Of a stretch of 64,000 nt of DNA, positions 24,077-61,100 are shown one piece after another. The translations under genes were made by a program, and so were the position numbers. Numbering within the stretch: the stretch's first letter is position 1; every line of letters starts with the position of its first letter. The notes below the pieces were generated by a model that saw only the letters and a program-made list of their open reading frames with translations, was not told the origin of the DNA and did no database searches. The stretch is from a bacterium SCSIO 12844. GTDB taxonomy: Bacteria; Pseudomonadota; Gammaproteobacteria; Francisellales; Francisellaceae. The DNA is taken from positions 2,666,001 through 2,730,000 of the forward strand of contig CP073743.1 of assembly GCA_024397935.1 (NCBI GenBank). Direction: 5' to 3'.

Positions 24077-25150
24077 ATGAGTAAAAAAGTTATTTTAGGA
24101 CTATCCGGTGGTGTTGATTCTTCTGTCTCTGCCCTACGCCTATTAGAAGCAGGTTATGATGTTACAGCTGTGTTCATGAAAAACTGGGAAGAAGATGATA
24201 ATGATGAATATTGTAGCGCATCAGAAGATATCAGTGATGCCGAAGCGATTTGTCAAAAACTTAATATTCCATTTAAAAAAATTAATTTTGCCAGTGAGTA
24301 TTGGGATTATGTTTTTGAATATTTTTTAAAAGAGTATAAGGCTGGACGTACACCAAACCCTGATATCTTATGTAATAAAGAAATCAAGTTTAAAGCTTTT
24401 TTAGAGTATGCCTATATGCTAGGTGGTCAATATATTGCAACAGGTCATTATGTAAGAAAAGATTTTTATAATGGCAAGTATCGCTTACTTAAGGGGCTAG
24501 ACCCTCAAAAAGATCAAAGCTACTTTTTATGCGCACTCAATCAACAGCAATTAGAGCCTGCCATTTTTCCAATTGGTGAAATTGAAAAATCTCAAGTTAG
24601 AGCAATCGCTGAAAAAGCAGGCCTTATCACACACAATAAAAAAGACTCAACTGGTATTTGTTTTATTGGCGAGCGTAAATTTAAGGATTTTTTAAATCGC
24701 TATATTCCAGCACAACCAGGTAATATTGAAGATGAATTTGGTAATGTTATTGGTAAGCATGATGGTTTAATGTATTACACGCTAGGACAACGCCAGGGCT
24801 TAGGTATTGGTGGTGTTAAAAATCGTCCTGAAGCACCATGGTTTTCAGCAAAAAAAGATTTAGAGCGAAATGTATTAGTTGCTGTACAAGGTACAGATCA
24901 CCCACTCCTTTTCTCACAAAACTTAAAAGCCAACCAATTTAATTGGATTTTAGATGCACCCCCTAAATCAGAATTTCAGTGTCAAGCTAAAGTCCGTTAT
25001 CGTCAAGGTGATCAAAATTGTACAGTTAAAGTACTAGATTCAGGTGATATAGAAGTTTCTTTTGAACAACCTCAACGAGCCATCACCCCCGGACAGTCGG
25101 TTGTTTTATATGATGGTGATATCTGTCTTGGCGGTGGGGTGATTATTTAA
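24077..25150 (+). CDS. mnmA: tRNA-specific 2-thiouridylase
   Basis: MnmA activates U34 of tRNA(Lys/Glu/Gln) with ATP and inserts sulfur received from the Tus relay. The PP-loop [13 protein letters not shown] is at residues 8-20. The two catalytic cysteines are in [10 protein letters not shown] and [11 protein letters not shown], and [14 protein letters not shown] is also conserved. 357 residues, normal length. The 3' end overlaps the convergent acidic protein gene by 8 bp. Confidence 0.97.
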
Positions 25151-26033
25151 AGGCTTCCCAATGATTTAAGTTTGATGTGACTGCAGACTTATCATCATGA
25201 TTATTACAAAATGGACTTGGCACATTTATTTTTTTTGCTGTTGCATTATTTTTTAACTTAAGCTCAGTTAAACTATCAATAATCGCGCTTTCTAGATTTT
25301 CTACACTATCTTTTTTGTTGGAATCATATGCTAAATTAACTAAGCGATCTCCTAATAAATATCCTGCTTTTCCACCTGCTGTCTCTAATTTTTGAATAGT
25401 TCTAATATTCTTCATTAAATTATTATACTTATCTAAATCAATATTTGGAGCTGCTAATAATCCGCATTCTTTTTTAAATAAGCAACTTACTCTAAAATCA
25501 AGTGCACCATCACTTTCTTTATAATATTTACTATAAAAGCTTATAATATTATCAAAATGTGATTTTTGATCTGCCAATAATGTAACATCTTCTGACTTTG
25601 CAAAACTTGCAACTCTTCTATTATACTCAATAGAAGAAAGTTTTTGATCAAAATCATCACTTTCAACAGATAGCGCCATTTTTTGTGCTGCTAAATAGCC
25701 AGAAACACCATCTTTTATTGCATGTAATCGCTCTAATTGTAGTTGCTGCTCATCTGTTAAGTTTTCATACTCATCTTGCGTAATTCTATTACGCTCATCC
25801 CAACCTGAGAATTGATCTTTTTGAATCAATTGTTGTACTTTAATATAAGCCATATTAAGTCGTTGCCAAGTTAAATTATTATGATCAGTATTGGCTGCTG
25901 ATAAATACCTATCTCCTTCAAGCCTATTATAATATCTTTGACCTGGTTTTTCACCGATAGTGGCTTCTTGTACTGAGCCAATAGTATGCTCAATAGCATA
26001 TGTTCTAGGAATTTTAATTTTTGTTTTTGGCAT
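25143..26033 (-). CDS. Hypothetical protein, predominantly helical and charged
   Basis: 296 residues from an ATG at 26033. A TTG 15 bp upstream is in frame, but GGGGAG lies 7 bp before this ATG, which also opens a natural basic N-terminus ([12 protein letters not shown]). The protein has no signal peptide or membrane helix, is rich in Asp, Glu, Lys, Asn and Gln, and looks mostly helical ([22 protein letters not shown] and the C-terminal half). It has a few cysteines (LFKKECG, FCNNHDD) with no metal-site spacing. No family is recognised. It is a single gene with its own palindrome-overlapped promoter. In a Francisella-like organism such orphans can be secreted effectors, but nothing in the sequence proves that. 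Confidence 0.65.
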
Positions 26034-26053
26034 TTTACAACTCCCCAATTTTC

Positions 26054-28792: not shown

Positions 28793-29485
28793 CTATTCTC
28801 TATGATCATATTTAGCAAAGCGATAGCCTATACCGCTTTCTGTTTCAATTAATGGCTCAATATTACAATTAGATAGCTTTTTGCGTAATTGACCAACATA
28901 AACTCTTAAATACTGTGGCTCATCTGAAAACACACTACCCCAAATTTTTGTTAGAATTTGCTGTTGAGTAACTAACTTACCTGCATATTTAATTAATAAG
29001 CTTAAGACCTGAAATTCTTTTTTTGATAATGAGATAATTTCATCATCAATCATAATGCGGTGTTCAGGAATATTCACTGTCATATTAGCAAACTGATAGA
29101 CTGTATACTCTTGCGTCTCTTGTGTCTGACTTCTTAATACCGCTCGAATACGTGCCATTAATACAGGCATTTCAAATGGTTTTGTTACATAGTCATTTGC
29201 ACCTAAGTCAAGCGCTTTAACAATTTGACTTTCTTCATCCCGAGCAGATAATACAATAACTGGTACATCTGACCATTGCCGCATTTCATCTAACCATTGA
29301 ATACCATCTTGATCAGGCAGCCCCAAATCTAAAATGACTAGTTCAGGTTTTTCATTAACAAGTAGTCGAGTCGCATTGGTTGCATCAATCGCTTCAAGAA
29401 TATCGTAATCATGTGCATTAAGCGTCATTTTTACAAATTTTCTAATTTGTGCTTCATCATCAACAATTAATACTTTCGTTTTCAT
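28793..29485 (-). CDS. kdpE: Response regulator, KdpE-like (OmpR family)
   Basis: 230 residues: receiver domain with D9/D10, phospho-acceptor D53 (VILDLGLPDQDG) and K102 (VTKPFE), then a winged-helix DNA-binding domain of the OmpR class. The sequence follows KdpE closely (VLIVDDEAQIRKFVK, LVILDLGLPDQDGI, SAREES-like SARDEESQIVKALDLGANDYVTKPF). KdpE normally activates the K+ ATPase operon kdpFABC, which is absent from the window. kdpD lies upstream with a 65-bp gap. The AAGGGG ribosome site is inside a small inverted repeat, TATCC-AAGG-GGATA. Confidence 0.88.
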   Translation of the reverse strand: MKTKVLIVDDEAQIRKFVKMTLNAHDYDILEAIDATNATRLLVNEKPELVILDLGLPDQDGIQWLDEMRQWSDVPVIVLSARDEESQIVKALDLGANDYVTKPFEMPVLMARIRAVLRSQTQETQEYTVYQFANMTVNIPEHRIMIDDEIISLSKKEFQVLSLLIKYAGKLVTQQQILTKIWGSVFSDEPQYLRVYVGQLRKKLSNCNIEPLIETESGIGYRFAKYDHRE

Positions 29486-29550
29486 TCTATCCCCTTGGAT
29501 AATACATACGCCCTTAACAATAACTTTATACTAATTTGATTGATTCCTCA

Positions 29551-31074
29551 CTATTTTATGTTAACTAATGGTAAGATAATTTCAAAACAACAGCCTTTAT
29601 TCTTTCCTTCGCTATAAGCATGAATTTCACCTTGATGTGCTTTAACTACTGCTTTACAGATAGCAAGTCCTAAACCTTGACCACCTGTAGGACTATAATC
29701 GCGTTTTTCAAATCGATAAAATAAATTAAATACTCGAGATAGTTCAGATTCCGGTAAACCTGGTCCTTGATCAATAACACGTAAGACCGCATTATCATCT
29801 TTATGTTCTAGTTTAATCATCACAAGTTTGTCTTTAGGTGAATATTTAACTGCATTTTCAACCAAGTTAACCAAAACTTGTTTAAATAACAAATCATCTA
29901 CCTTAACAAATAGCTCATGTTCAAAATTAAATTCAAATGGCTGATTTGGATAATATATTTTAAACTGACTAATCACATCTTGAATAATTTCGTTTAATGA
30001 TGCTAATTCTAATTCTGGGTTGATTTGCTCATGTTCAACACGTACTAATTGCAATACTTTATTAATATACTGCTTTAACCTTTTTGCTTCATTTTGAGCC
30101 ACATCTAATAATTCATCTCGTTCTTGGGCACTAAACATTTCTCCATATGCTTGTAAACTAGAAATAGCACCCATGATTGATGCAAGTGGTGTTTTAAAGT
30201 CATGGGAAACTGAAGATAATAATAGTTTTTGCAAATGTTGCTGTTCTTTTAACATTTCTTGGTGTTTTTCGCGTGCTTCAATTTGATGTTTTAATATTCT
30301 ATACGCTACCTGTGTTAACATCGTTTTAAATAAATACTGTTGCTCTGGCATTAAGAACTCTTTATGCTTAGCAACTTTTGCAGCCATGATACCTACATAT
30401 TCATTTGATGCTTTCATTGGCATAAAATACCAATCGATAAAAGGATAAGCTTCCGTGCTAATACCACAAGGTTTTTTATGTTTCCAAGACCATAACATCG
30501 CATTATGAACCTTACCCTCTATAGAAAGTTCATCGTTAGTCTCAGGATAAATATCGGTTAATTTTTCTCCTTGGCGATCAGCTGTAATCATAGCAAATGG
30601 TATACTAAAATAATAATTCAATAATTGAATCACTATTTGATAAAAATCTTCAATTCGATGTGTTTTTGATAATGATGCTGAAAAGTCATACAGCGTTGAT
30701 AATTCCGACTCACGAGCTTTCAATTGTTTTAAAGATGATTTTAAGCGTGCGGTTAACTGACCAACTGTCACAGAAACAATGATAAAAGCAACCAATGTAA
30801 CAACTTCTGACGCTGTATCAATATTAAATGTAAACTGCGGACTGGTAAAAATAAAGACATAGCTTAAAAAAGATAAGAAATTTGCAATTATACTAACAAC
30901 AAAGCTATATCTAATGGCACACCATACAACTGTTAGTAATAATATCATCACTTGCGTTGTTAAGCTGATATGTTTGGTCAACAATGCAGCAACAATCGTT
31001 GCAATTCCGATTAAAACAACCGTTTTAATTATCTCAATTAATAGTAAATGATCAAACTGTATTTTTAATTTCAA
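29551..31074 (-). CDS. kdpD: KdpD-like sensor histidine kinase lacking the N-terminal KdpD/Usp domains
   Basis: 507 residues: a cluster of about four membrane helices (residues 10-110), a GAF-like domain (about 125-260), HisKA with H291 in SSVSHDFKTPLASI, and HATPase with NLVENAVKY, DQGPGLP and GQGLGLAICKAV. This is the C-terminal half of KdpD; canonical KdpD is about 890 residues with a 400-residue cytoplasmic ATP/UspA-like sensor in front of the helices. The frame upstream of the TTG start meets a stop 12 codons away, so the missing part is not simply mis-called. An AAGG site precedes the TTG. Stimulus perception must differ from classical KdpD. Confidence 0.85.
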   Translation of the reverse strand: MKLKIQFDHLLLIEIIKTVVLIGIATIVAALLTKHISLTTQVMILLLTVVWCAIRYSFVVSIIANFLSFLSYVFIFTSPQFTFNIDTASEVVTLVAFIIVSVTVGQLTARLKSSLKQLKARESELSTLYDFSASLSKTHRIEDFYQIVIQLLNYYFSIPFAMITADRQGEKLTDIYPETNDELSIEGKVHNAMLWSWKHKKPCGISTEAYPFIDWYFMPMKASNEYVGIMAAKVAKHKEFLMPEQQYLFKTMLTQVAYRILKHQIEAREKHQEMLKEQQHLQKLLLSSVSHDFKTPLASIMGAISSLQAYGEMFSAQERDELLDVAQNEAKRLKQYINKVLQLVRVEHEQINPELELASLNEIIQDVISQFKIYYPNQPFEFNFEHELFVKVDDLLFKQVLVNLVENAVKYSPKDKLVMIKLEHKDDNAVLRVIDQGPGLPESELSRVFNLFYRFEKRDYSPTGGQGLGLAICKAVVKAHQGEIHAYSEGKNKGCCFEIILPLVNIK

Positions 31075-31422
31075 TCGATTAAACCTTACTAAGTCTTTGT
31101 TAATGGTTTAGCATAAAAAAATAAAATATACATAATCATATTTTATCACATAATATAATTATTTTTAGTTATCTTATTCCAAAATAGTATATTAATACTT
31201 ATAACTTAAAATCACCACTATCAATCGCATTTTTATTCACTTTTAAAATATATATCATAACTTTAACCAAAATTCACAATTAATTACTTGTAAAAAAAAT
31301 AACATATAAATTAAAAATAATTATTGCCAAAAGAATAAAAACAAGATAAAACTGATTGGATGTGTATTTTATATTTAATTTATAGTAAAACCTAAATTAA
31401 TGAATATTGGAGGACGGAGCCT
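31075..31422. other. AT-rich divergent promoter region between kdpD and the first POT gene
   Basis: This 348-bp gap holds no ORF of note and no RNA gene that I can see. It is nearly all A/T, with many possible -10-like TATAAT/TATAAA hexamers in both directions, so individual promoters cannot be assigned. A strong GGAGGACGGAG stretch just before 31423 serves as the ribosome site of the POT gene. It must carry the promoters of both kdpDE and the transporter. Confidence 0.5.
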
Positions 31423-32931
31423 ATGACAGTAACGGGAGAACAAAACACAATGAAACAAACAAAAAGTGGTTATCCACTACCGTTTTGGGTTGCATGGGCA
31501 ATTGAGCTATGGGAGCGCTTTGGCTTTTATGGAATGCAAGCAATCATTGCACTTTACTTTGTTCGTTCTCTAGGTTATTCATCACAAGAAAGCTTTTATA
31601 TTTTTGGTTCATTCTCCGCTTTTTGTTATGGGTTTATATGGGTCGGTGGCTGGGTTGGTGATAAATACTTAGGCGCTAAACGTAGTATTGTTATTGGCTC
31701 TGTAATTTTAATGTTATCCTATGCAGCGATGGCACTTGCAACCAAGGAAACTATCTTTTTTGCACTTGCTGGTGTTATTGTTGGTAATGCATTATTTAAA
31801 GCTAACCCCTCCTCATTAATTTCTAAAATCTATGGTCAAGGTAACCCTCAACTTGATGGCGCAATGACAATGTATTATGTTGCTGTCAATGTTGGTAGCT
31901 TATTGTCGATGTCTATCACCCCAATTATTGCTGAAATCTGGGGTTGGCACTACGCATTTTGGGTCTGTTCATTTGGTCTATTATTAGGTATTATTAATTT
32001 CTGTATTTTCTTACCTAAGATGCAGGATTTATCGACTGAAGCTGGTAAGCGCCCTTTTAGTATTGCACGCATCTTAATCGTTATTATTGCATCGATCATA
32101 GCAACAATCGTAATTGGTAATATTCTTGAATTGACTGCACTTATTACAACTGCTACGTTCATTATTAGTGGCTTATGCTTTATTTATTTTCTATACTGTG
32201 CTTTTAAGCAACCTAGTGAAATTCGAAATCGCATGATTATTTCACTTGTGTTAATGTTTCAAGCAATTGTCTTTTTTACACTTTATCAGCAAATGCCAAC
32301 AAGTCTTAATTTCTTTGCTGCACATAATATCGACCGTGCTGTTGGCTCCTGGATGATTCCAGCTGCTGAGTTTCAACTACTAAACCCATTAGTTATTGTA
32401 CTAATGGCGCCCGTATTAGCCTTTTTCTATCGTAAAACACCTGGCACACATGCAACTAAATTCTGCTTTGGGATGACTTTATGTGCTTTCGCATTTCTAG
32501 TACTATACATCCCTCAATTTACAGCAGGTAGTGATGGATTAGCCTCCCCATGGTGGTTAGTTTTATCCTATTGGTTACAATCAACAGGTGAGCTTTTAGT
32601 CTCTGCATTAGGCCTTGCAATGGTAGCTGAGCTATGCCCTGCTAGTATGAGTGGTTTTGTTATGGGTATCTGGTTTTTAACTTCTATGCTATCTGGTCCT
32701 ATTGGTGCTTGGGTAGGTAATATGACACAACCTGTTGGCAGTGAAACTTTAACTGCCGTTGAAAGTATTAGTATTTATAGTAATGCATTTGGTGAAATTG
32801 GCCTTGCTACTGCCATTGTTGCAGTCATTATGTGGGCAATGCGCCCACTACTTAATCGCTATACAAATCCTGAAATTGAGCAACAAAAAGCCGCTGAAAA
32901 AATCTTTGAAGCAAAACCTGCTACCGTTTGA
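31423..32931 (+). CDS. POT/PTR2 family proton-coupled oligopeptide transporter (copy 1)
   Basis: 502 residues with 12-14 hydrophobic helices. The first helix has the POT proton motif as ELWERFGFY (ExxERFxYY in most members). NALFKANPSSLISKIYG and the DGAMTMYYVAVNVGSLLS helix are PTR2 signatures. These symporters import di- and tripeptides, an amino-acid source important for intracellular Francisella relatives. GGAGG precedes the ATG. The downstream copy 2 is a close paralog, so the pair arose by tandem duplication. Confidence 0.93.
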   Translation: MTVTGEQNTMKQTKSGYPLPFWVAWAIELWERFGFYGMQAIIALYFVRSLGYSSQESFYIFGSFSAFCYGFIWVGGWVGDKYLGAKRSIVIGSVILMLSYAAMALATKETIFFALAGVIVGNALFKANPSSLISKIYGQGNPQLDGAMTMYYVAVNVGSLLSMSITPIIAEIWGWHYAFWVCSFGLLLGIINFCIFLPKMQDLSTEAGKRPFSIARILIVIIASIIATIVIGNILELTALITTATFIISGLCFIYFLYCAFKQPSEIRNRMIISLVLMFQAIVFFTLYQQMPTSLNFFAAHNIDRAVGSWMIPAAEFQLLNPLVIVLMAPVLAFFYRKTPGTHATKFCFGMTLCAFAFLVLYIPQFTAGSDGLASPWWLVLSYWLQSTGELLVSALGLAMVAELCPASMSGFVMGIWFLTSMLSGPIGAWVGNMTQPVGSETLTAVESISIYSNAFGEIGLATAIVAVIMWAMRPLLNRYTNPEIEQQKAAEKIFEAKPATV

Positions 32932-33065
32932 TTTTATAAAATAATACTCTTTTCATATCCAAATCATAATTTAACAATATAAACTTAATTTCAAGTTATC
33001 TTTATATATTATTTTTCTTTTTATATTGCATTTTTACCTTAAATAGGATAAAAATAGTAATCTTA

Positions 33066-33083
33066 TGCTGTATGGTTACAGCA
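33066..33083. other. Short perfect hairpin between the two POT genes
   Basis: TGCTGTA-TGGT-TACAGCA is a 7-bp perfect stem with a 4-nt loop in an otherwise featureless 201-bp AT-rich gap, 50 bp upstream of the second POT gene. No U-tract follows in either direction, so it may be an operator or leader structure instead of a terminator. Confidence 0.35.
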
Positions 33084-33132
33084 ATGCAGAATATTTAATA
33101 AAATAAAAAATAAAATAGCCTAAGGTGATATT

Positions 33133-34578
33133 TTGACAACTACACTATCAAACCATCTTCATTCAAATACTTTAAGCCAAGAAAAATCAAAAGCATTTCC
33201 ACTACCTTTTTGGATTGTTTGGTCAATTGAGTTTTGGGAACGTTTTGGTTTTTACGGTGTTCAAGCAATATTAGCCTTATATATGTCAAACCATCTAGGC
33301 TATTCGTCAACGCAAAGTATGATCATATTTGGTTCATTTTCTGCCTTTTGTTATGGTTTTGTCTGGGTTGGTGGCTTAATCGGTGATCAATATTTAGGTG
33401 CCAAAAGAACCATTTTAATTGGTGGTATTATCTTAATGCTCTCTTATGTGCTATTGGCGCTTGGTGATAAAGCCACTTTCTTTTATAGCCTAAGTGGTAT
33501 TATTATTGGTAATGCATTATTTAAAGCGAATCCATCTTCATTAATCTCTAAATTATATCAGCCTAGCGATACTCGATTAGATGGTGCAATGACATTATAT
33601 TATTTTGCCATTAATATTGGTGGCTTTATTTCAGTATTATTTACACCAACACTACCCTATATGGATGCATTTTTACTCTGTGGAATCGGGCTTTTAGTTG
33701 GTATTAGCATTTTTAGTATCATGTTTAACAAACTCAATACAGTCTATACTAAAGCAGATCAAAAAAGCTTTCACTTAACTAGATTCATTCATGTTATTGG
33801 TGCAGCTATCATTGCTATTATTGTCGTTGCACAGCTACTTAATCACTCTAATTTCGTTACTAGTTGTGCTTTTATTATCAGTAGCCTATGCTTTATTTAC
33901 TTTATTATAAAATCATTTAATTTTACGACTACTGAACGAAACCGTATGCTCATTGCCTTGATATTAATTATTCAAGCTATTTTATTTTTTGCGCTTTATC
34001 AACAAATGCCAACAAGCTTAACCTTCTTTGCTCAACATAATGTCATGCGCGAAGTTGGCAGCTATACGATTCCTAGCGCTTATTTTTTTAATCTTAATCC
34101 TTTCTTTATTATGCTAATGTCACCTCTATTAGCTTACTTTTACAAGAAATCACCATCAACTCATGTAACTAAGTTTGCACTCGGTATGACATTATGTGCA
34201 TTTGGGTTTTTAATCTTATGGGTTAGCCAATTTTATGCAACTGACGGCATTGTTTCACCGTGGTTTTTAGTACTAAGCTACTGGCTACAGTCAACTGGTG
34301 AATTATTTATTTCAGCGCTTGGTCTTGCTATGGTTGCAGCCCTTTGCCCTAAAGAAATGAGTGGCTTTGTTATGGGGCTATGGTTCGTCTCAGTAATGTT
34401 AGCGGGACCTGTCGGTGCATGGCTTGGAGAATTAACCCAGCCACCACAACATAGTCATTTATCTACCATTGAAGCTCTTTCTCTTTATACGCATGCTTTT
34501 GGAGAGATTGGTCTTATTACACTAATTGTTTCATTAGCGATGTGGTTATTTAGACCTTTACTGAATCGCTATATATAA
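33133..34578 (+). CDS. POT/PTR2 family proton-coupled oligopeptide transporter (copy 2)
   Basis: 481 residues, clearly paralogous to copy 1 along its whole length (EFWERFGFYGVQAILALYM, SFSAFCYGFVWVGG, NALFKANPSSLISKLY, FALYQQMPTSLTFFAQHN). It keeps the motif glutamates and arginine of the proton-coupling helix. Translation must start at TTG 33133: there is no other Met before helix 1, and AAGGTGATAT sits just upstream. The start codon and leader differ from copy 1, suggesting separate expression. Peptide range is unknown. Confidence 0.92.
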   Translation: MTTTLSNHLHSNTLSQEKSKAFPLPFWIVWSIEFWERFGFYGVQAILALYMSNHLGYSSTQSMIIFGSFSAFCYGFVWVGGLIGDQYLGAKRTILIGGIILMLSYVLLALGDKATFFYSLSGIIIGNALFKANPSSLISKLYQPSDTRLDGAMTLYYFAINIGGFISVLFTPTLPYMDAFLLCGIGLLVGISIFSIMFNKLNTVYTKADQKSFHLTRFIHVIGAAIIAIIVVAQLLNHSNFVTSCAFIISSLCFIYFIIKSFNFTTTERNRMLIALILIIQAILFFALYQQMPTSLTFFAQHNVMREVGSYTIPSAYFFNLNPFFIMLMSPLLAYFYKKSPSTHVTKFALGMTLCAFGFLILWVSQFYATDGIVSPWFLVLSYWLQSTGELFISALGLAMVAALCPKEMSGFVMGLWFVSVMLAGPVGAWLGELTQPPQHSHLSTIEALSLYTHAFGEIGLITLIVSLAMWLFRPLLNRYI

Positions 34579-52111: not shown

Positions 52112-55100
52112 TTACTTTTTACCAAACAGTTTTAATAAGTAATGTTTGGTTTGCTCTATCTGATAACGATAGCCTAACTCACGCTCTTTATCCCGCTCAG
52201 CAATCAACTGCTCAATATCAATTGATTGGTCATTTAAAAGCTTATCTTTAATGCTTTCTAATAAGCCAGGTGTTAAGAAAGTAGTAACATTATCTTGCGT
52301 AACTTTATCTAGCAGCTCAGCAATCATTGCTTTAACTTCACCTTGACTACTTTCCACACTAATGTTTTCTAGCTTAGCAATAGCTTCTTCTAAATTAGCG
52401 TCATTAAATAACTGATAAACTTCATTAACCTGAGCTTGTTCAATCACTGCACCATTACCATTTGCATGCCCATTACCATTTAGTGCAGCTTGCTCAATTT
52501 GCTCTACTTTATCAGAGCTTAATGAGAAATGAAGCTCATGATACATAACATTATCTTTATAAATTCTAGCAATAAAGTTTGTATCTCCATCATAATCAGA
52601 GTTACCAACATACTTCACGTTAACCTCATTTGCATTTGTTGATATTTCAAAACTTCCCTGATGAGGCTCAACGCCTTCGATTGACATTGTAACACCAGGC
52701 TGATTATAAACTGTAAATAAGTTTATACCATCTGTTTTTGGCACTAACGCTTTGAATGGATCAGATATAGTTCCTTGAGCAGTTAAAGCTGTTTCTATTT
52801 CAATTGAAATTGTAATTGATATCGTTGCATCAAGACCTGTAATATCATCACCAATACCTTCAGATGAAACCACTCCTTCATCTGGTGATGTTATGCCAAC
52901 AAATAATGGTGGCCTATAATCTATAATATCAATTCTACTCAAGCCATCACGAGGTAAGAATACTTGACGATGCACATCAGATATAAAGGTATCACCACGA
53001 TCAAAGCCATTTAACTGAATTAATCCACTATCTATAACGTGTGTACCATCTGTTACATGAAAGCGGAAGCTTGGTGCATTAAATGAATCATCGTGAAGGA
53101 AGCCAACTGTACCATTTAAAATTTCTTGGAAAGTAAATGCAGTGACTGGCGCACCTGTCGCTATATTAACAAATGATGCACTATTAATCTCAGTTAATGT
53201 AATAATTAAATTAACTGGAATTGTATCAAGATCAATAATATCAACAATGCTATTATCAAATACAACTAATACACCTCTATCTATCGTAAATGGTGTAACT
53301 GTTAATTGTGGTACATCTGCAATGTCAATAACATTAATCGCTACCGTATCAACATCTAAAAGACTTGTTGCATCGGTTGATGTAACAACCAATAAATCTG
53401 AACCAAAGTAATTTAAATCACCTAAATACTGTAAGCTTGCTAAGGTCGCATTAATATCTGCTTCACTACCTGTGATAGTTAAATCACCACTGCCATTACT
53501 ACCGGCACTTATTGTCGCACTGCCTGATAAACTAACCGTTAAGCTACCATTACTTACTTGTAGACGTGTTGATGATAAATTACCATCTGGATCGGTAACA
53601 CTGATACCGGCTATGGCTGTTAGTGTATCCTCTGGAATACTTTGAGCACCTGGCACTGTATTAATTGGTGCATCATCGGCCGGATTAACCGTAATTGTCA
53701 CTGTATCTACATCTGTTAAGCTTGTTGGCAAGGTTGCATCGCTTGAAGTTACTGTTAAAGTATCTAAACCATTAAAGTCTTGGCTACCTTGATAAGTTAA
53801 ACTTGCTAAGGTCGCATTAATATCAGCCTCACTACCTGTGATGGTTAAATCACCACTGCCATTACTACCTGCACTGATCGTTGCACTACCTGATAAGATA
53901 ACTGTTAAGCTACCATCATTAACTTGTAATTGCGTACTTACTAAATCACCATCAACATCCGTTACACTGATTAAATTACCATTACCCACATTAAAGGCTA
54001 AGATTTCATCTTCATTAACACTTTGAGCACCTGGGACACTATTAACTGGAGCATCTGCTGTATTGGTTACTATAATCTCAACCGTATCAACATCACTTAA
54101 GCTTGTTGCATCGGTTGAGGTAACCGTTAATATATCTGAACCAATAAAGTCTGTATTACCTTGATAGGTTAAGCTTAATAACGTTGCATTAATGTCAGCT
54201 TCACTTCCTGAAATCGTTAAATCACCACTACCATTACTACCACCACTGATCGTTGCACTACCTGATAAAATTACCGTTAATATACCATTATTAACCGCTA
54301 ATTGAGTGGATGATAAGTTGCCATTTGGATCGGTAACACTAATACTACCAATACCTAATATTGCTTCTTCGGCTACTGCTTGAGCACCTGGAACAGTATT
54401 AACTGGCGCATCCGATGGATTCGCTGAATTAACGGTTATACCTAATACATCAACATCTGATAATGCTGGCGCTGCACTGTCAAATGATGTAACTGTTAAG
54501 ACATCTGCACCAGTAAAGCCTAAACTACCTTGATAAATTAAACTTGATAAGCTTGCATTAATATCTGCTTCACTGCCTGAAATCGTTAAATCACCACTGC
54601 CATTAGAACCCGCACTGATCGTTGCACCACCTACTAATATAACAGTCAAGCTACCATTATTTACTTGTAAGCGAGTCGTTGCTAAATTGCCATCAACATC
54701 CGTTACACTAATACCTGCAATGGCTAATGGTAATTCCTGATTGGCTGTTTGATTACCTGGTAAACTATTCACTGGTGGATCATTTAATGGATTAACATTA
54801 ATCGCAACGGTATCTACATCTGATAATGGCGTTGCACTTGAATCTAATGATGTGACCGTTAAGACATCTGAACCATTATAATGTAAGTTAGCTTGATAGA
54901 TTAAAGTTGCTAACGTTGCATTGATATCAGCCTCACTACCTGAGATGGTTAAATCACCACTGCCATTACTACCTGCACTTATCGTTGCACTACCTGATAA
55001 ACTAATGGTTAATGTACCATTATTAACCTGTAATTGAGTCGATGATAAATTACCATCTGGATCTGTCACTGTAATGGCATTACCACCACCTAAGTTAAAG

Positions 55101-58100
55101 GCTAAGGCTGTATCTTCATCTACACTTTGAGCGCCTGGGACACTGTTAATTGGTGGATCATTATCTAATGAAGTAACATTAATCGCAACGGTATCTACAT
55201 CACTTAAGCTTGTTGCATCGGTTGAAGTAACCGTTAATAAATCTGGACCAAAGTAGTCTTGATTACCCTGATATGTCAATGTCGCTAAGGTGTTATTAAT
55301 ATCAACTTCACTACCTGAAATCGTTAAGTCACCACTACCGTTACTACCGGCACTGATCGTTGCACTACCTGATAAGGTAACGGTTAAGAAACCATTATGC
55401 ACTTCTAGGCGTGTTGTTGATAAGTTGCCATTTGGATCGGTAACACTGATACCGCCTAATGCTAAAACTGTATCTTCATTAATACTTTGAGCGCCAGGGA
55501 AAGTATTAACTGGGGCATCTGATGGATTCGCTGCATTAACTGTAATTGCAACAGTATCTACATCACTTAAGCCTGTTGGTAAGGTTGCATCAACTGAAGT
55601 CATCGTTAAGGTATCTGAACCAACAAAGGCTGCATTTCCTTCATAAATTAAGGTTGCTAAGGTATTGTTAATATCAGCTTCACTACCTGTGATGGTTAAA
55701 TCACCGCTACCATTACTACCACTACTAATTGTCGCACTACCTGCTAAAGTAACCGTTAAGAAACCATTATTAACCTGTAATTGCGTACTTACTAAATTAC
55801 CATCTGGGTCTGTAACACTTAAGCCTGTAATTGCATGTGGTAATTCTTGATCGGCTGTTTGAGCACCTGGCACTGTATTAATCGGTGCATCATTATCATT
55901 CGCTGTAACATTAATCGCCACTGTATCAACATCTAATAAACTCGTTGCATCTAATGAAAGTACCGTTAAGACATCTGGACCAAAGTAATCTTGATTGCCT
56001 TGATATTGTACGCTTGCTAATGTCGCATTGATATCCGCTTCACTACCTGAAATGGTTAAATCACCGCTGCCATTACTACCGGCACTTATTGTTGCACTGC
56101 CTGATAAGATAACAGTCAAGCTACCATTACTTACCGTTAATTGAGTCGATGATAAATTACCATCTGGATCGGTAACACTGATACCAGCTATGGCTGTTAA
56201 TGTATCCTCTGGAATACTTTGAGCTCCTGGCACTGTATTAATCGGTGCATCATTATCTACTGCTGTGACAGTAATATTAATCGTATCTACATCAGTTAAA
56301 CCAGTTGGTAAAGTTGCATCGGTTGACGTCATCGTTAAGGTATCTAAACCAAAGAAGTTAAAGTTACCTAAATAGGTTAATGAGGCTAAAGTTGCATTAA
56401 TATCTGCTTCACTACCTGTGATGGTTAAATCACCACTGCCATTACTACCGCTACTTATCGTTGCACTGCCAACTAAGATCACTTCTAAAGTACCATTATT
56501 AACCTGTAACTGAGTTGAGACTAAGTTGCCATCTGGGTCGGTGACACTTAAGCCATTAATACCACTAGTAAAGGCTAAGGTTTCATCTTCATTGACTACT
56601 TGTGGGCCTGGCACTGTATTAATTGGTGCGTCATTATCTACTGCTGTGACATTAATCGCTACCGTATCAACATCTAAAAGACTTGTTGCATCGGTTGATG
56701 TAACAACCAATAAATCTGAACCAAAGTAATTTAAATCACCTAAATACTGTAAGCTTGCTAAGGTCGCATTAATATCTGCTTCACTACCTGAAATGGTTAA
56801 ATCACCACTGCCATTACTACCGGCACTTATTGTCGCACTGCCTGATAAACTAACCGTTAAGCTACCATTACTTACTTGTAGACGTGTTGATGATAAATTA
56901 CCATCTGGATCGGTAACACTGATACCGGCTATGGCTGTTAGTGTATCCTCTGGAATACTTTGAGCACCTGGCACTGTATTAATTGGTGCATCATCGGCCG
57001 GATTAACCGTAATTGTCACTGTATCTACATCTGTTAAGCTTGTTGGCAAGGTTGCATCGCTTGAAGTTACTGTTAAAGTATCTGAACCATTAAAGTCTTG
57101 GCTACCTTGATAAGTTAAACTTGCTAAGGTGGCATTAATATCAGCCTCACTACCTGTGATGGTTAAATCACCACTGCCATTACTACCACCACTGATCGTT
57201 GCACTACCTGATAAGATAACTGTTAAGCTACCATCATTAACTTGTAATTGCGTACTTACTAAATCACCATCAACATCCGTTACACTGATTAAATTACCAT
57301 TACCCACATTAAAGGCTAAGATTTCATCTTCATTAACACTTTGAGCACCTGGAACACTATTAACCGGAGCATCTGCTGTATTGGTTACTATAATCTCAAC
57401 CGTATCAACATCACTTAAGCTTGTTGCATCGGTTGAGGTAACCGTTAATATATCTGAACCAATAAAGTCTGTATTACCTTGATAGGTTAAGCTTAATAAC
57501 GTTGCATTAATGTCAGCTTCACTACCTGAAATGGTTAAATCACCACTACCATTACTACCACCACTGATCGTTGCACTACCTGATAAAGTTACCGTTAATA
57601 TACCATTATTAACCGCTAATTGAGTGGATGATAAGTTGCCATTTGGATCGGTAACACTAATACTACCAATACCTAATATTGCTTCTTCTGCTACTGCTTG
57701 AGCACCTGGAACAGTATTAACTGGCGCATCCGATGGATTCGCTGAATTAACTGTTATACCTAATACATCAACATCTGATAATGCTGGCGCTGCACTGTCA
57801 AATGATGTAACTGTTAAGACATCTGCACCAGTAAAGCCTAAACTACCTTGATAAATTAAACTTGATAAGCTTGCATTAATATCTGCTTCACTGCCTGAAA
57901 TCGTTAAATCACCACTGCCATTAGAACCCGCACTGATCGTTGCACCACCTACTAATATAACAGTCAAGCTACCATTATTTACTTGTAAGCGAGTCGTTGC
58001 TAAATTGCCATCAACATCCGTTACACTAATACCTGAAATGGCTAATGGTAATTCCTGATTGGCTGTTTGATTACCTGGTAAACTATTCACTGGTGGATCA

Positions 58101-61100
58101 TTTAATGGATTAACATTAATCGCAACGGTATCTACATCTGATAATGGCGTTGCACTTGAATCTAATGATGTGACCGTTAAGACATCTGAACCATTATAAT
58201 GTAAGTTAGCTTGATAGATTAAAGTTGCTAACGTTGCATTGATATCAGCCTCACTACCTGAGATGGTTAAATCACCACTGCCATTACTACCACTACTAAT
58301 TGTCGCACTACCTGCTAAAGTAACCGTTAAGAAACCATTATTAACCTGTAATTGAGTCGATGCTAAATTACCATCTGGATCAGTTACTGTAATAGCATTA
58401 CCACCACCTAAGTTAAAGGCTAAGGCTGTATCTTCATCTACACTTTGAGCGCCTGGGACACTGTTAATTGGTGGATCATTATCTAATGAAGTAACATTAA
58501 TCGCAACGGTATCTACATCACTTAAGCTTGTTGCATCGGTTGAAGTAACCGTTAATAAATCTGGACCAAAGTAGTCTTGATTACCCTGATATGTCAATGT
58601 CGCTAAGGTGTTATTAATATCAACTTCACTACCTGAAATCGTTAAGTCACCACTACCGTTACTACCGGCACTGATCGTTGCACTACCTGATAAGGTAACG
58701 GTTAAGAAACCATTATGCACTTCTAGGCGTGTTGTTGATAAGTTACCATTTGGATCGGTAACACTGATACCGCTTAATGCTAAAACTGTATCTTCATTAA
58801 CACTTTGAGCGCCAGGGAAAGTATTAACTGGGGCATCTGATGGATTCGCTGCATTAACTGTAATTGCAACAGTATCTACATCACTTAAGCCTGTTGGTAA
58901 GGTTGCATCAACTGAAGTCATCGTTAAGGTATCTGAACCAACAAAGGCTGCATTTCCTTCATAAATTAAGGTTGCTAAGGTATTGTTAATATCAGCTTCA
59001 CTACCTGTGATGGTTAAATCACCGCTACCATTACTACCACTACTAATTGTCGCACTACCTGCTAAAGTAACCGTTAAGAAACCATTATTAACCTGTAATT
59101 GCGTACTTACTAAATTACCATCTGGGTCTGTAACACTTAAGCCTGTAATTGCATGTGGTAATTCTTGATCGGCTGTTTGAGCACCTGGCACTGTATTAAT
59201 CGGTGCATCATTATCATTCGCTGTAACATTAATCGCCACTGTATCAACATCTAATAAACTCGTTGCATCTAATGAAAGTACCGTTAAGACATCTGGACCA
59301 AAGTAATCTTGATTGCCTTGATATTGTACGCTTGCTAATGTCGCATTGATATCCGCTTCACTACCTGAAATGGTTAAATCACCGCTGCCATTACTACCGG
59401 CACTTATTGTTGCACTGCCTGATAAGATAACAGTCAAGCTACCATTACTTACCGTTAATTGAGTCGATGATAAATTACCATCTGGATCGGTAACACTGAT
59501 ACCAGCTATGGCTGTTAATGTATCCTCTGGAATACTTTGAGCTCCTGGCACTGTATTAATCGGTGCATCATTATCTACTGCTGTGACAGTAATATTAATC
59601 GTATCTACATCAGTTAAACCAGTTGGTAAAGTTGCATCGGTTGACGTCATCGTTAAGGTATCTAAACCAAAGAAGTTAAAGTTACCTAAATAGGTTAATG
59701 AGGCTAAAGTTGCATTAATATCTGCTTCACTACCTGTGATGGTTAAATCACCACTGCCATTACTACCGCTACTTATCGTTGCACTGCCAACTAAGATCAC
59801 TTCTAAAGTACCATTATTAACCTGTAACTGAGTTGAGACTAAGTTGCCATCTGGGTCGGTGACACTTAAGCCATTAATACCACTAGTAAAGGCTAAGGTT
59901 TCATCTTCATTGACTACTTGTGGGCCTGGCACTGTATTAATTGGTGCGTCATTATCTACTGCTGTGACATTAATCGCTACCGTATCAACATCTAAAAGAC
60001 TTGTTGCATCGGTTGATGTAACAACCAATAAATCTGAACCAAAGTAATTTAAATCACCTAAATACTGTAAGCTTGCTAAGGTCGCATTAATATCTGCTTC
60101 ACTACCTGAAATGGTTAAATCACCACTGCCATTACTACCGGCACTTATTGTCGCACTGCCTGATAAACTAACCGTTAAGCTACCATTACTTACTTGTAGA
60201 CGTGTTGATGATAAATTACCATCTGGATCGGTAACACTGATACCGGCTATGGCTGTTAGTGTATCCTCTGGAATACTTTGAGCACCTGGCACTGTATTAA
60301 TTGGTGCATCATCGGCCGGATTAACCGTAATTGTCACTGTATCTACATCTGTTAAGCTTGTTGGCAAGGTTGCATCGCTTGAAGTTACTGTTAAAGTATC
60401 TGAACCATTAAAGTCTTGGCTACCTTGATAAGTTAAACTTGCTAAGGTGGCATTAATATCAGCCTCACTACCTGTGATGGTTAAATCACCACTGCCATTA
60501 CTACCACCACTGATCGTTGCACTACCTGATAAGATAACTGTTAAGCTACCATCATTAACTTGTAATTGCGTACTTACTAAATCACCATCAACATCCGTTA
60601 CACTGATTAAATTACCATTACCCACATTAAAGGCTAAGATTTCATCTTCATTAACACTTTGAGCACCTGGAACACTATTAACCGGAGCATCTGCTGTATT
60701 GGTTACTATAATCTCAACCGTATCAACATCACTTAAGCTTGTTGCATCGGTTGAGGTAACCGTTAATATATCTGAACCAATAAAGTCTGTATTACCTTGA
60801 TAGGTTAAGCTTAATAACGTTGCATTAATGTCAGCTTCACTACCTGAAATGGTTAAATCACCACTACCATTACTACCACCACTGATCGTTGCACTACCTG
60901 ATAAAGTTACCGTTAATATACCATTATTAACCGCTAATTGAGTGGATGATAAGTTGCCATTTGGATCGGTAACACTAATACTACCAATACCTAATATTGC
61001 TTCTTCTGCTACTGCTTGAGCACCTGGAACAGTATTAACTGGCGCATCCGATGGATTCGCTGAATTAACTGTTATACCTAATACATCAACATCTGATAAT

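What the first reader, a model, noticed from the sequence alone, without database searches (positions are those of the whole stretch)
28793..34578. Kdp two-component pair without sensor domain or kdpFABC, facing two peptide transporters
The kinase retains only the membrane, GAF and catalytic parts of KdpD and has lost the 400-residue Usp-containing sensor. A stop 12 codons upstream rules out a mis-called start. No potassium ATPase gene is adjacent; across a shared 348-bp promoter region lie two POT permeases. The pair may have been rewired, possibly to nutrient or peptide uptake.
Basis: partly seen in the sequence, partly recalled or inferred. Interest (0 to 1): 0.5.

Follow-up and report, generated by a model that had tools for sequence, protein, structure and literature searches.

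The report
Kdp sensor without its pump-braking half
A potassium-sensing gene switch lacks both the potassium pump it normally controls and the half of the sensor that shuts that pump off, and it sits back to back with two peptide importers; most of the similar cut-down sensors examined elsewhere sit beside other potassium importers, so the switch is probably intact but re-targeted.

Summary
28793-31074(-) encodes KdpE (230 aa) and a 507-aa KdpD with DUF4118 membrane, GAF-like and histidine-kinase parts but no N-terminal KdpD (PF02702) or Usp domain. The single-contig genome (99% complete) has no KdpA or PF02702 match and no other DUF4118 match. Divergent POT1 and POT2 are DtpA-like permeases.

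'Lost its sensor' is inaccurate. Published work puts E. coli K+ sensing in the membrane and GAF parts, kept here; the missing domain is a serine kinase that phosphorylates pump subunit KdpB. A sister genome has the same arrangement, with KdpDE under purifying selection.

The short form recurs. Of 38 short KdpD loci, 0 adjoin kdpA and 26 adjoin Kup, Trk, Ktr or KimA; of 20 hand-picked full-length controls, 20 adjoin kdpABC and 0 adjoin the others. Peptide permeases adjoin only this genus's two.

Best reading: an intact K+/turgor-responsive pair, probably re-targeted to POT1. That step is inferred: KdpE-box-like sites flank POT1 but are weak, and a third genus member has POT1 and its core promoter without KdpDE. 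A KtrAB operon elsewhere is the main rival target.

The parts
28793..29485 (-). KdpE-type OmpR-family response regulator, 230 aa
   Evidence: Pfam Response_reg + Trans_reg_C; best NCBIfam hit KdpE at 213 bits, below its 325 cut-off; top PDB hits 6lgq_D (regulator in an entry with a KdpD kinase) and KdpE 4kny, 4kfc; recognition-helix region YLRVYVGQLRKKL nearly unchanged in the nine KdpEs aligned (its role is recalled)
29551..31074 (-). short KdpD: DUF4118 membrane domain, GAF-like, HisKA, HATPase_c; no PF02702, no Usp; TTG start
31075..31422 (.). divergent intergenic region kdpD / POT1
31324..31352 (+). putative POT1 core promoter TTGCCA-N17-TAAAAC, same hexamers and spacing in G000, G031 and KdpDE-less G032
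   Evidence: read by eye; place checked
31334..31351 (-). KdpE-box-like site TTTTATCTTGTTTTTATT, 12/14, over the POT1 -10; identical in G031, 10/14 in G032
   Evidence: not significant alone (66 of 300 shuffles of the G031 region reach 12)
31367..31384 (+). KdpE-box-like site TTTTATATTTAATTTATA, 13/14, just downstream of the POT1 core promoter; 10/14 in G031
   Evidence: (10 of 300 shuffles reach 13)
31423..32931 (+). POT1, DtpA-like di/tripeptide permease, 502 aa
   Evidence: PF00854; TIGR00924 353 bits, cut-off 130
33019..33036 (+). KdpE-box-like site 12/14 before POT2; poorly conserved in G031
33133..34578 (+). POT2, DtpA-like permease, 481 aa
   Evidence: PF00854; TIGR00924 330 bits

Best explanation
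[quoted passage not shown] The kinase kept the membrane and GAF-like parts to which K+ (turgor) sensing is assigned and the histidine-kinase core, so it should still pass phosphate to KdpE. It lacks the N-terminal serine-kinase/Usp part, probably shed because its one known substrate, KdpB, went with kdpFABC. Shown here: domain content, absence of KdpA, conservation and purifying selection in two species, recurrence of the short form, and its association with non-Kdp transporters. Inferred: KdpE~P now acts on the divergent POT1 promoter (and perhaps POT2), so that peptide import follows K+/osmotic state, as OmpR does for dtpA/tppB in enterobacteria.
For: No KdpA, no PF02702 in a single-contig genome. 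H, N and G boxes intact by eye. dN/dS against G031: KdpE 0.045 (8th lowest dN of 40 orthologs), POT1 0.050 (9th), KdpD 0.078 (18th). Same arrangement in G031. The 80 best named relatives returned are full length: 79 of 80 carry the KdpD domain in frame and the other is cut by a contig end, so a loss is likely. 38 of 38 short KdpDs have DUF4118 + kinase, 0 of 38 PF02702; 26 of 38 adjoin Kup/Trk/Ktr/KimA, 0 of 38 kdpA; 20 of 20 full-length controls adjoin kdpABC, 0 of 20 the others (Fisher 1.3e-7). The N-domain phosphorylates KdpB (PMC11018627). KdpE-box-like sites: 3 of the 4 intergenic ones in the window flank POT1 (binomial 0.007, post hoc). OmpR control of dtpA/tppB (passages).
Against: The POT step is weak: the best box (13/14) is not conserved in G031; the conserved one is 12/14 and within chance; both lie at or downstream of the -10, not where an activator would be expected. 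Three other gaps in the window are as well conserved. G032 lacks KdpDE and POT2 but has POT1 with the same core promoter. POT adjoins KdpDE only in this genus (2 of 38, one inheritance). The 'no pump, no N-domain' reason is not general at genome level: 9 of the 29 genomes with a listed short frame also list a full-length KdpD, and G349 has both. On the tree the short G349, G000/G031 and G004 branch in turn below the full-length Francisellaceae forms, so a regain is not excluded.
Confidence: 0.45

Rival explanations
1. The pair is intact but its main target is a K+ transporter in trans, above all the KtrA-KtrB operon elsewhere in the genome; the POT neighbours are incidental.
For: The second, KtrB-type TrkH match is present in the two genus members that have KdpDE and absent from the one that lacks it and from genera g2-g5 (TrkA_N/TrkH). 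26 of 38 short KdpDs adjoin K+ transporters, two of them KtrB.
Against: No KdpE-box-like site in the 150 bp upstream of ktrA: 10/14 and 9/14, below the shuffle means. Not adjacent. Three genomes are few, and G032 is a smaller genome.
Confidence: 0.3
2. A relic: after kdpFABC was lost the regulators persist with little function and are decaying.
For: No N-terminal domain and no pump; G032 has no KdpDE at all; long branch below the G000/G031 pair.
Against: Open frames, TTG start and Shine-Dalgarno in both species, catalytic boxes, low dN/dS.
Confidence: 0.08
3. The short kinase is biased to the kinase state (it cannot repress at high K+) and KdpE serves as a general regulator with many targets, not tied to either neighbour.
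For: PMC2714519 (passages) says that truncated E. coli KdpDs respond to K+ limitation but, in all examples known to its authors, do not repress at high K+. Short KdpDs also adjoin a phosphate transporter with PhoU and a TonB-ExbBD cluster.
Against: No regulon data; 26 of 38 short forms adjoin a K+ transporter.
Confidence: 0.17

Closest known systems
KdpD/KdpE of E. coli and Francisella with kdpFABC
   Same: TM (DUF4118), GAF-like and HK parts; KdpE with near-identical recognition helix; 57% identity to Fangia KdpE
   Different: No serine-kinase (PF02702) or Usp domain, no KdpA, different place in the chromosome
Split KdpD versions (KdpD/Usp chain plus TM/GAF/HK chain) in PMC11018627, section 8
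   Same: A TM/GAF/HK chain without the N-domain
   Different: There the N-domain is on another chain and the pump is present (the survey took species with an annotated pump); here neither was found
N-domain-only KdpD (Deinococcus geothermalis type), PMC11018627
   Same: One half of the tandem kinase is missing
   Different: The opposite half: that form keeps the serine kinase and lacks the HK
KdpD1/KdpE1 co-transcribed with KupA in Azotobacter (PMC4465626, one passage, annotation)
   Same: KdpDE beside a non-Kdp transporter
   Different: Neighbour is Kup, not a peptide permease; domain content not stated in the passage
OmpR/EnvZ control of tripeptide permease tppB/dtpA (passages in PMC3945435, PMC5438342)
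   Same: OmpR-family regulator and DtpA-like POT permease
   Different: EnvZ has another sensor (recalled); control shown by experiment there, only inferred here

Membership tests
KdpD (full, tandem Ser/His kinase) | N-terminal KdpD domain PF02702 | tested here: not met
   NCBIfam KdpD 257.9 bits against cut-off 1123
KdpD (full, tandem Ser/His kinase) | Usp domain | tested here: not met
KdpD (full, tandem Ser/His kinase) | four-helix DUF4118 membrane domain | tested here: met
   (74.6 bits, cut-off 28.4); 2ksf match; helices themselves not predicted
KdpD (full, tandem Ser/His kinase) | GAF-like domain | tested here: inconclusive
   no Pfam GAF hit; match to the KdpD structure 4qpr at E 7e-5 over 194-260
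KdpD (full, tandem Ser/His kinase) | HisKA/HATPase_c with H, N, G boxes | tested here: met
KdpE | receiver plus winged helix closest to KdpE | tested here: met
   KdpE is the best NCBIfam hit and among the top three in PDB, though below the NCBIfam cut-off
Kdp system | kdpFABC in the genome | tested here: not met
   KdpA 0 matches; 5 of 14 control genomes ring; KdpB, KdpC and KdpF were not searched genome-wide
Kdp system | kinase, phosphatase and K+ response | not testable with these tools
   needs biochemistry
POT / DtpA-like permease | PF00854 and TIGR00924 above cut-off | tested here: met
   both below the DtpA equivalog cut-off
KdpE-regulated promoter | TTTTATA-N4-TTTTATA direct repeat (derived here from kdpF promoters of 14 relatives) | tested here: inconclusive

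The most novel reading that the evidence does not exclude
KdpD is modular and its architecture tracks its transporter: the serine-kinase half is kept beside the Kdp pump, while a half-size KdpD, arisen several times, pairs with whatever uptake system stands next to it (Kup, Trk, Ktr, KimA); in this genus it has left K+ uptake and couples di/tripeptide import to K+/turgor.
Probability: 0.35. Interest if true: 0.65.

Novelty: new variant of a known kind. Interest (0 to 1): 0.5.

Why it matters
In 2024 KdpD's N-terminal half was shown to be a serine kinase that brakes the Kdp pump. A natural set of KdpDs without that half, most of those examined beside other K+ transporters, makes the two functions separable and testable: what the histidine-kinase half senses and controls on its own. 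If this genus couples peptide uptake to K+ state, it is a clear case of a regulator changing its target after its transporter was lost. The architecture-to-transporter rule, if it holds in a full survey, would also sharpen the annotation of genes now called 'KdpD'.

Tried and rejected
Mis-called start: rejected (stop 12 codons upstream; TTG and Shine-Dalgarno in both species). N-domain on a separate chain: rejected for this genome (0 PF02702). Kdp pump elsewhere: rejected on KdpA. Kup as the substitute transporter here: no K_trans match in G000. KdpE box in the 150 bp before ktrA: not found. A conserved block in the kdpD-POT1 gap as evidence of KdpE control: dropped, because 3 other gaps of the 16 compared reach the same 69/70. 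A single origin of the short form: not supported, the label needs 6 changes on the tree (9 short rows of 43); but long branches make the placing of G000/G031, G004 and G349 unsure, and G012 fell out of the tree as a fragment.

Rows dropped or chosen before counts. Class survey (369 genomes; 34 KdpD matches at E <= 1e-45): G205 and G060 are full-length KdpDs split by a frame break, and G332 is cut by a contig end. Left: 24 full-length, all 24 with KdpA; 7 short (G000, G155, G117, G191, G302, G290, G349), of which only G349 has KdpA, in broken frames, with a separate broken full-length KdpD (Fisher). G332 has KdpA and no PF02702 match; counted as short it would make 2 of 8. Phylum survey: its match list was truncated; I fetched every listed frame under 760 aa (32, three already in hand), and the query was a Trk-adjacent short KdpD, which may favour such forms. 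In the 38, G455 is cut by a contig end, so its N-domain is not excluded. In one search I used 34 rows (22 with a K+ neighbour), leaving out four that aligned by BLAST over the kinase core only; Pfam later found DUF4118 in all 38, so the final count is 38. The 38 are related (14 from one family): by family, 10 of 17 against 0 of 13 (p 0.001). The 20 controls were picked by hand from the full-length rows. A second control, the 80 named loci, gave kdpABC within 5 kb in 72 and another K+ transporter within 3 kb in 6, all 6 also beside kdpABC. Weak kdpB-like hits (72-154 bits) in 4 of 38 were read as other P-type ATPases, since the controls score 649-819. For the KdpE box, 15 kdpF promoters were printed and 14 used; G003, of another family, was left out, and several of the 14 are near-copies. 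A script of mine first lost 15 of the 80 loci to antisense frames and was replaced; one search counted 80 of 80 with a probe that included Usp, corrected to 79 of 80 with the KdpD domain alone.

Literature searches for prior reports: (mostly listings seen). One genome paper (PMC4465626, passage) notes KdpDE with KupA; PMC2700814 (passage) notes a kup gene 3' of a kdp cluster in Geobacter sulfurreducens; PMC9062700 passages and the Francisella review PMC6584805 passages (full-length KdpD with kdpABC in environmental strains) gave no short form. No paper was found that links absence of the N-domain to non-Kdp transporters, but subscription papers and preprints are mostly not held.
Full report
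What is there. Searches confirm the four genes, the 348-bp gap and the upstream stop. The kinase holds DUF4118, HisKA and HATPase_c and matches solved pieces of KdpD along its length: TM domain (2ksf), GAF domain (4qpr, weakly) and HK (6lgq, among many other HKs). KdpE is the best NCBIfam hit of the regulator and among its top three PDB hits. Neither protein reaches NCBIfam's equivalog cut-off. The permeases are POT family, DtpA-like.

Genome context. The window lies in a single-contig genome of 3.19 Mb (99% complete) with no match to KdpA, PF02702 or Kup and no other DUF4118 match. It has TrkH and a second TrkH-family gene that forms a KtrA-KtrB operon. Relatives searched were the 33 genomes of its order. 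In Fangia, in G030 (the genus of G025) and in G007 (genus g3), full-length KdpD-KdpE follow kdpABC directly.

Sister genomes. G031 has the same block deaD-kdpE-kdpD-POT1-POT2-priA-secA, with KdpD 83% and KdpE 90% identical. G032 has no KdpDE, POT2 or second TrkH gene but has POT1 between deaD and priA. G004 of another genus (57% complete) has a short KdpD with a convergent KdpE and no POT or K+ transporter hit within 3 kb. POT1 also lies about 4 kb from priA in g3 genome G009, without KdpDE there, so the Kdp pair seems to have come to POT1, not the reverse (inference).

Function. Over 40 orthologs of the window and G031, KdpE and POT1 have the 8th and 9th lowest dN, KdpD the 18th; dN/dS is 0.045-0.078 (dS is above 1, so ratios are rough). 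Catalytic motifs are intact by eye. This speaks against decay.

Why the N-terminus may have gone. PMC11018627 (abstract, section 8 and passages read; [quoted passage not shown] PMC2714519 (abstract and passages) reports that a KdpD derivative lacking the N-terminal region still responds to K+ limitation, and that truncated forms cannot repress at high K+. With no KdpB, the domain has no known substrate. The 80 best named relatives are full length (79 of 80 with the KdpD domain in frame, the other cut by a contig end), so the short form is most simply a loss.

A recurrent form. In a class survey of 369 genomes, 24 of 24 genomes with full-length KdpD have KdpA, against 1 of 7 with short KdpD (exclusions under Tried and rejected). 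In a phylum survey of 398 genomes (list truncated) I fetched the 29 listed short-frame loci not already in hand; with 9 earlier ones this gave 38. Pfam: 38 of 38 DUF4118, HisKA and HATPase_c, 0 of 38 PF02702, 5 of 38 Usp. Neighbours within 3 kb: Kup, TrkH/TrkA, KtrB or KimA in 26 of 38; kdpA or kdpC within 5 kb in 0 of 38. KimA was identified by PDB match (6s3k, E 1e-58). Of 20 full-length controls picked from the same survey, 20 have kdpA, B and C and 0 have the others; of the 80 named loci, 72 have kdpABC and 6 also another K+ transporter. In one search, 9 of the 29 genomes with a listed short frame (G433, G455, G459, G463, G470, G474, G526, G537, G733) also list a full-length KdpD, so the link is to the operon rather than the genome. 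The tree needs 6 changes of the short label. Peptide permeases occur beside the short form only in G000 and G031 (2 of 38); one other has a Pit phosphate transporter with PhoU and one a TonB-ExbB-ExbD cluster.

Is POT1 the target? From kdpF promoters of 14 relatives I derived a box TTTTATA-N4-TTTTATA. The whole 64-kb window has 11 sites of 12/14 or better; 4 are intergenic and 3 of those flank POT1. This is post hoc. The 13/14 site is not conserved in G031. The 12/14 site identical in G031 overlaps the -10 and falls within chance by shuffling; it is 10/14 in G032, which has no KdpE. Positions at or after the -10 would suit repression better than activation. Precedent: OmpR binds and regulates tppB/dtpA (passages in PMC3945435 and PMC5438342).

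Verdict. A sound observation with a partly right interpretation. It is a new variant of a known system: a KdpDE without the pump-braking half, part of a recurrent class, with an unusual neighbour. Control of the POT genes is plausible and untested.

Noticed in passing
window 52112-63943 (-): 3943-aa open frame with bacterial cadherin-like repeats (PF17803); the highest dN of 40 orthologs compared with G031, perhaps a giant surface adhesin.
   Followed up: partly
L080 7317-9346 (-) and L081 7373-9402 (+): KtrA-KtrB operon in the two genus members with KdpDE; the third has a single TrkH-family match.
   Followed up: partly
window 33067-33082: Dyad GCTGTATGGTTACAGC just after the putative POT2 promoter, largely kept in G031; perhaps an operator of another regulator.
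   Followed up: no
L051 (G032): The genus member with the smaller genome lacks kdpDE, POT2 and the second TrkH gene but has POT1.
   Followed up: partly
L187 8366-10475 (+) (G487): Short KdpD divergent from PhoU_div and PHO4 (Pit) genes: another non-K+ transporter beside a short KdpDE.
   Followed up: partly
L204 3539-5497 (-) (G670): KimA-like K+ importer directly downstream of a short KdpDE.
   Followed up: yes
G022, G023 (same family, genus g6): Decaying Kdp loci: broken KdpA and KdpD frames in G022; a 313-aa frame with the N-terminal KdpD domain and no KdpA match in G023.
   Followed up: no
window 25143-26048 (-): 301-aa open frame with a TTG start and no Pfam or NCBIfam match; the syntenic place in G031 holds a 400-aa frame without a BLAST match to window proteins.
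   Followed up: no
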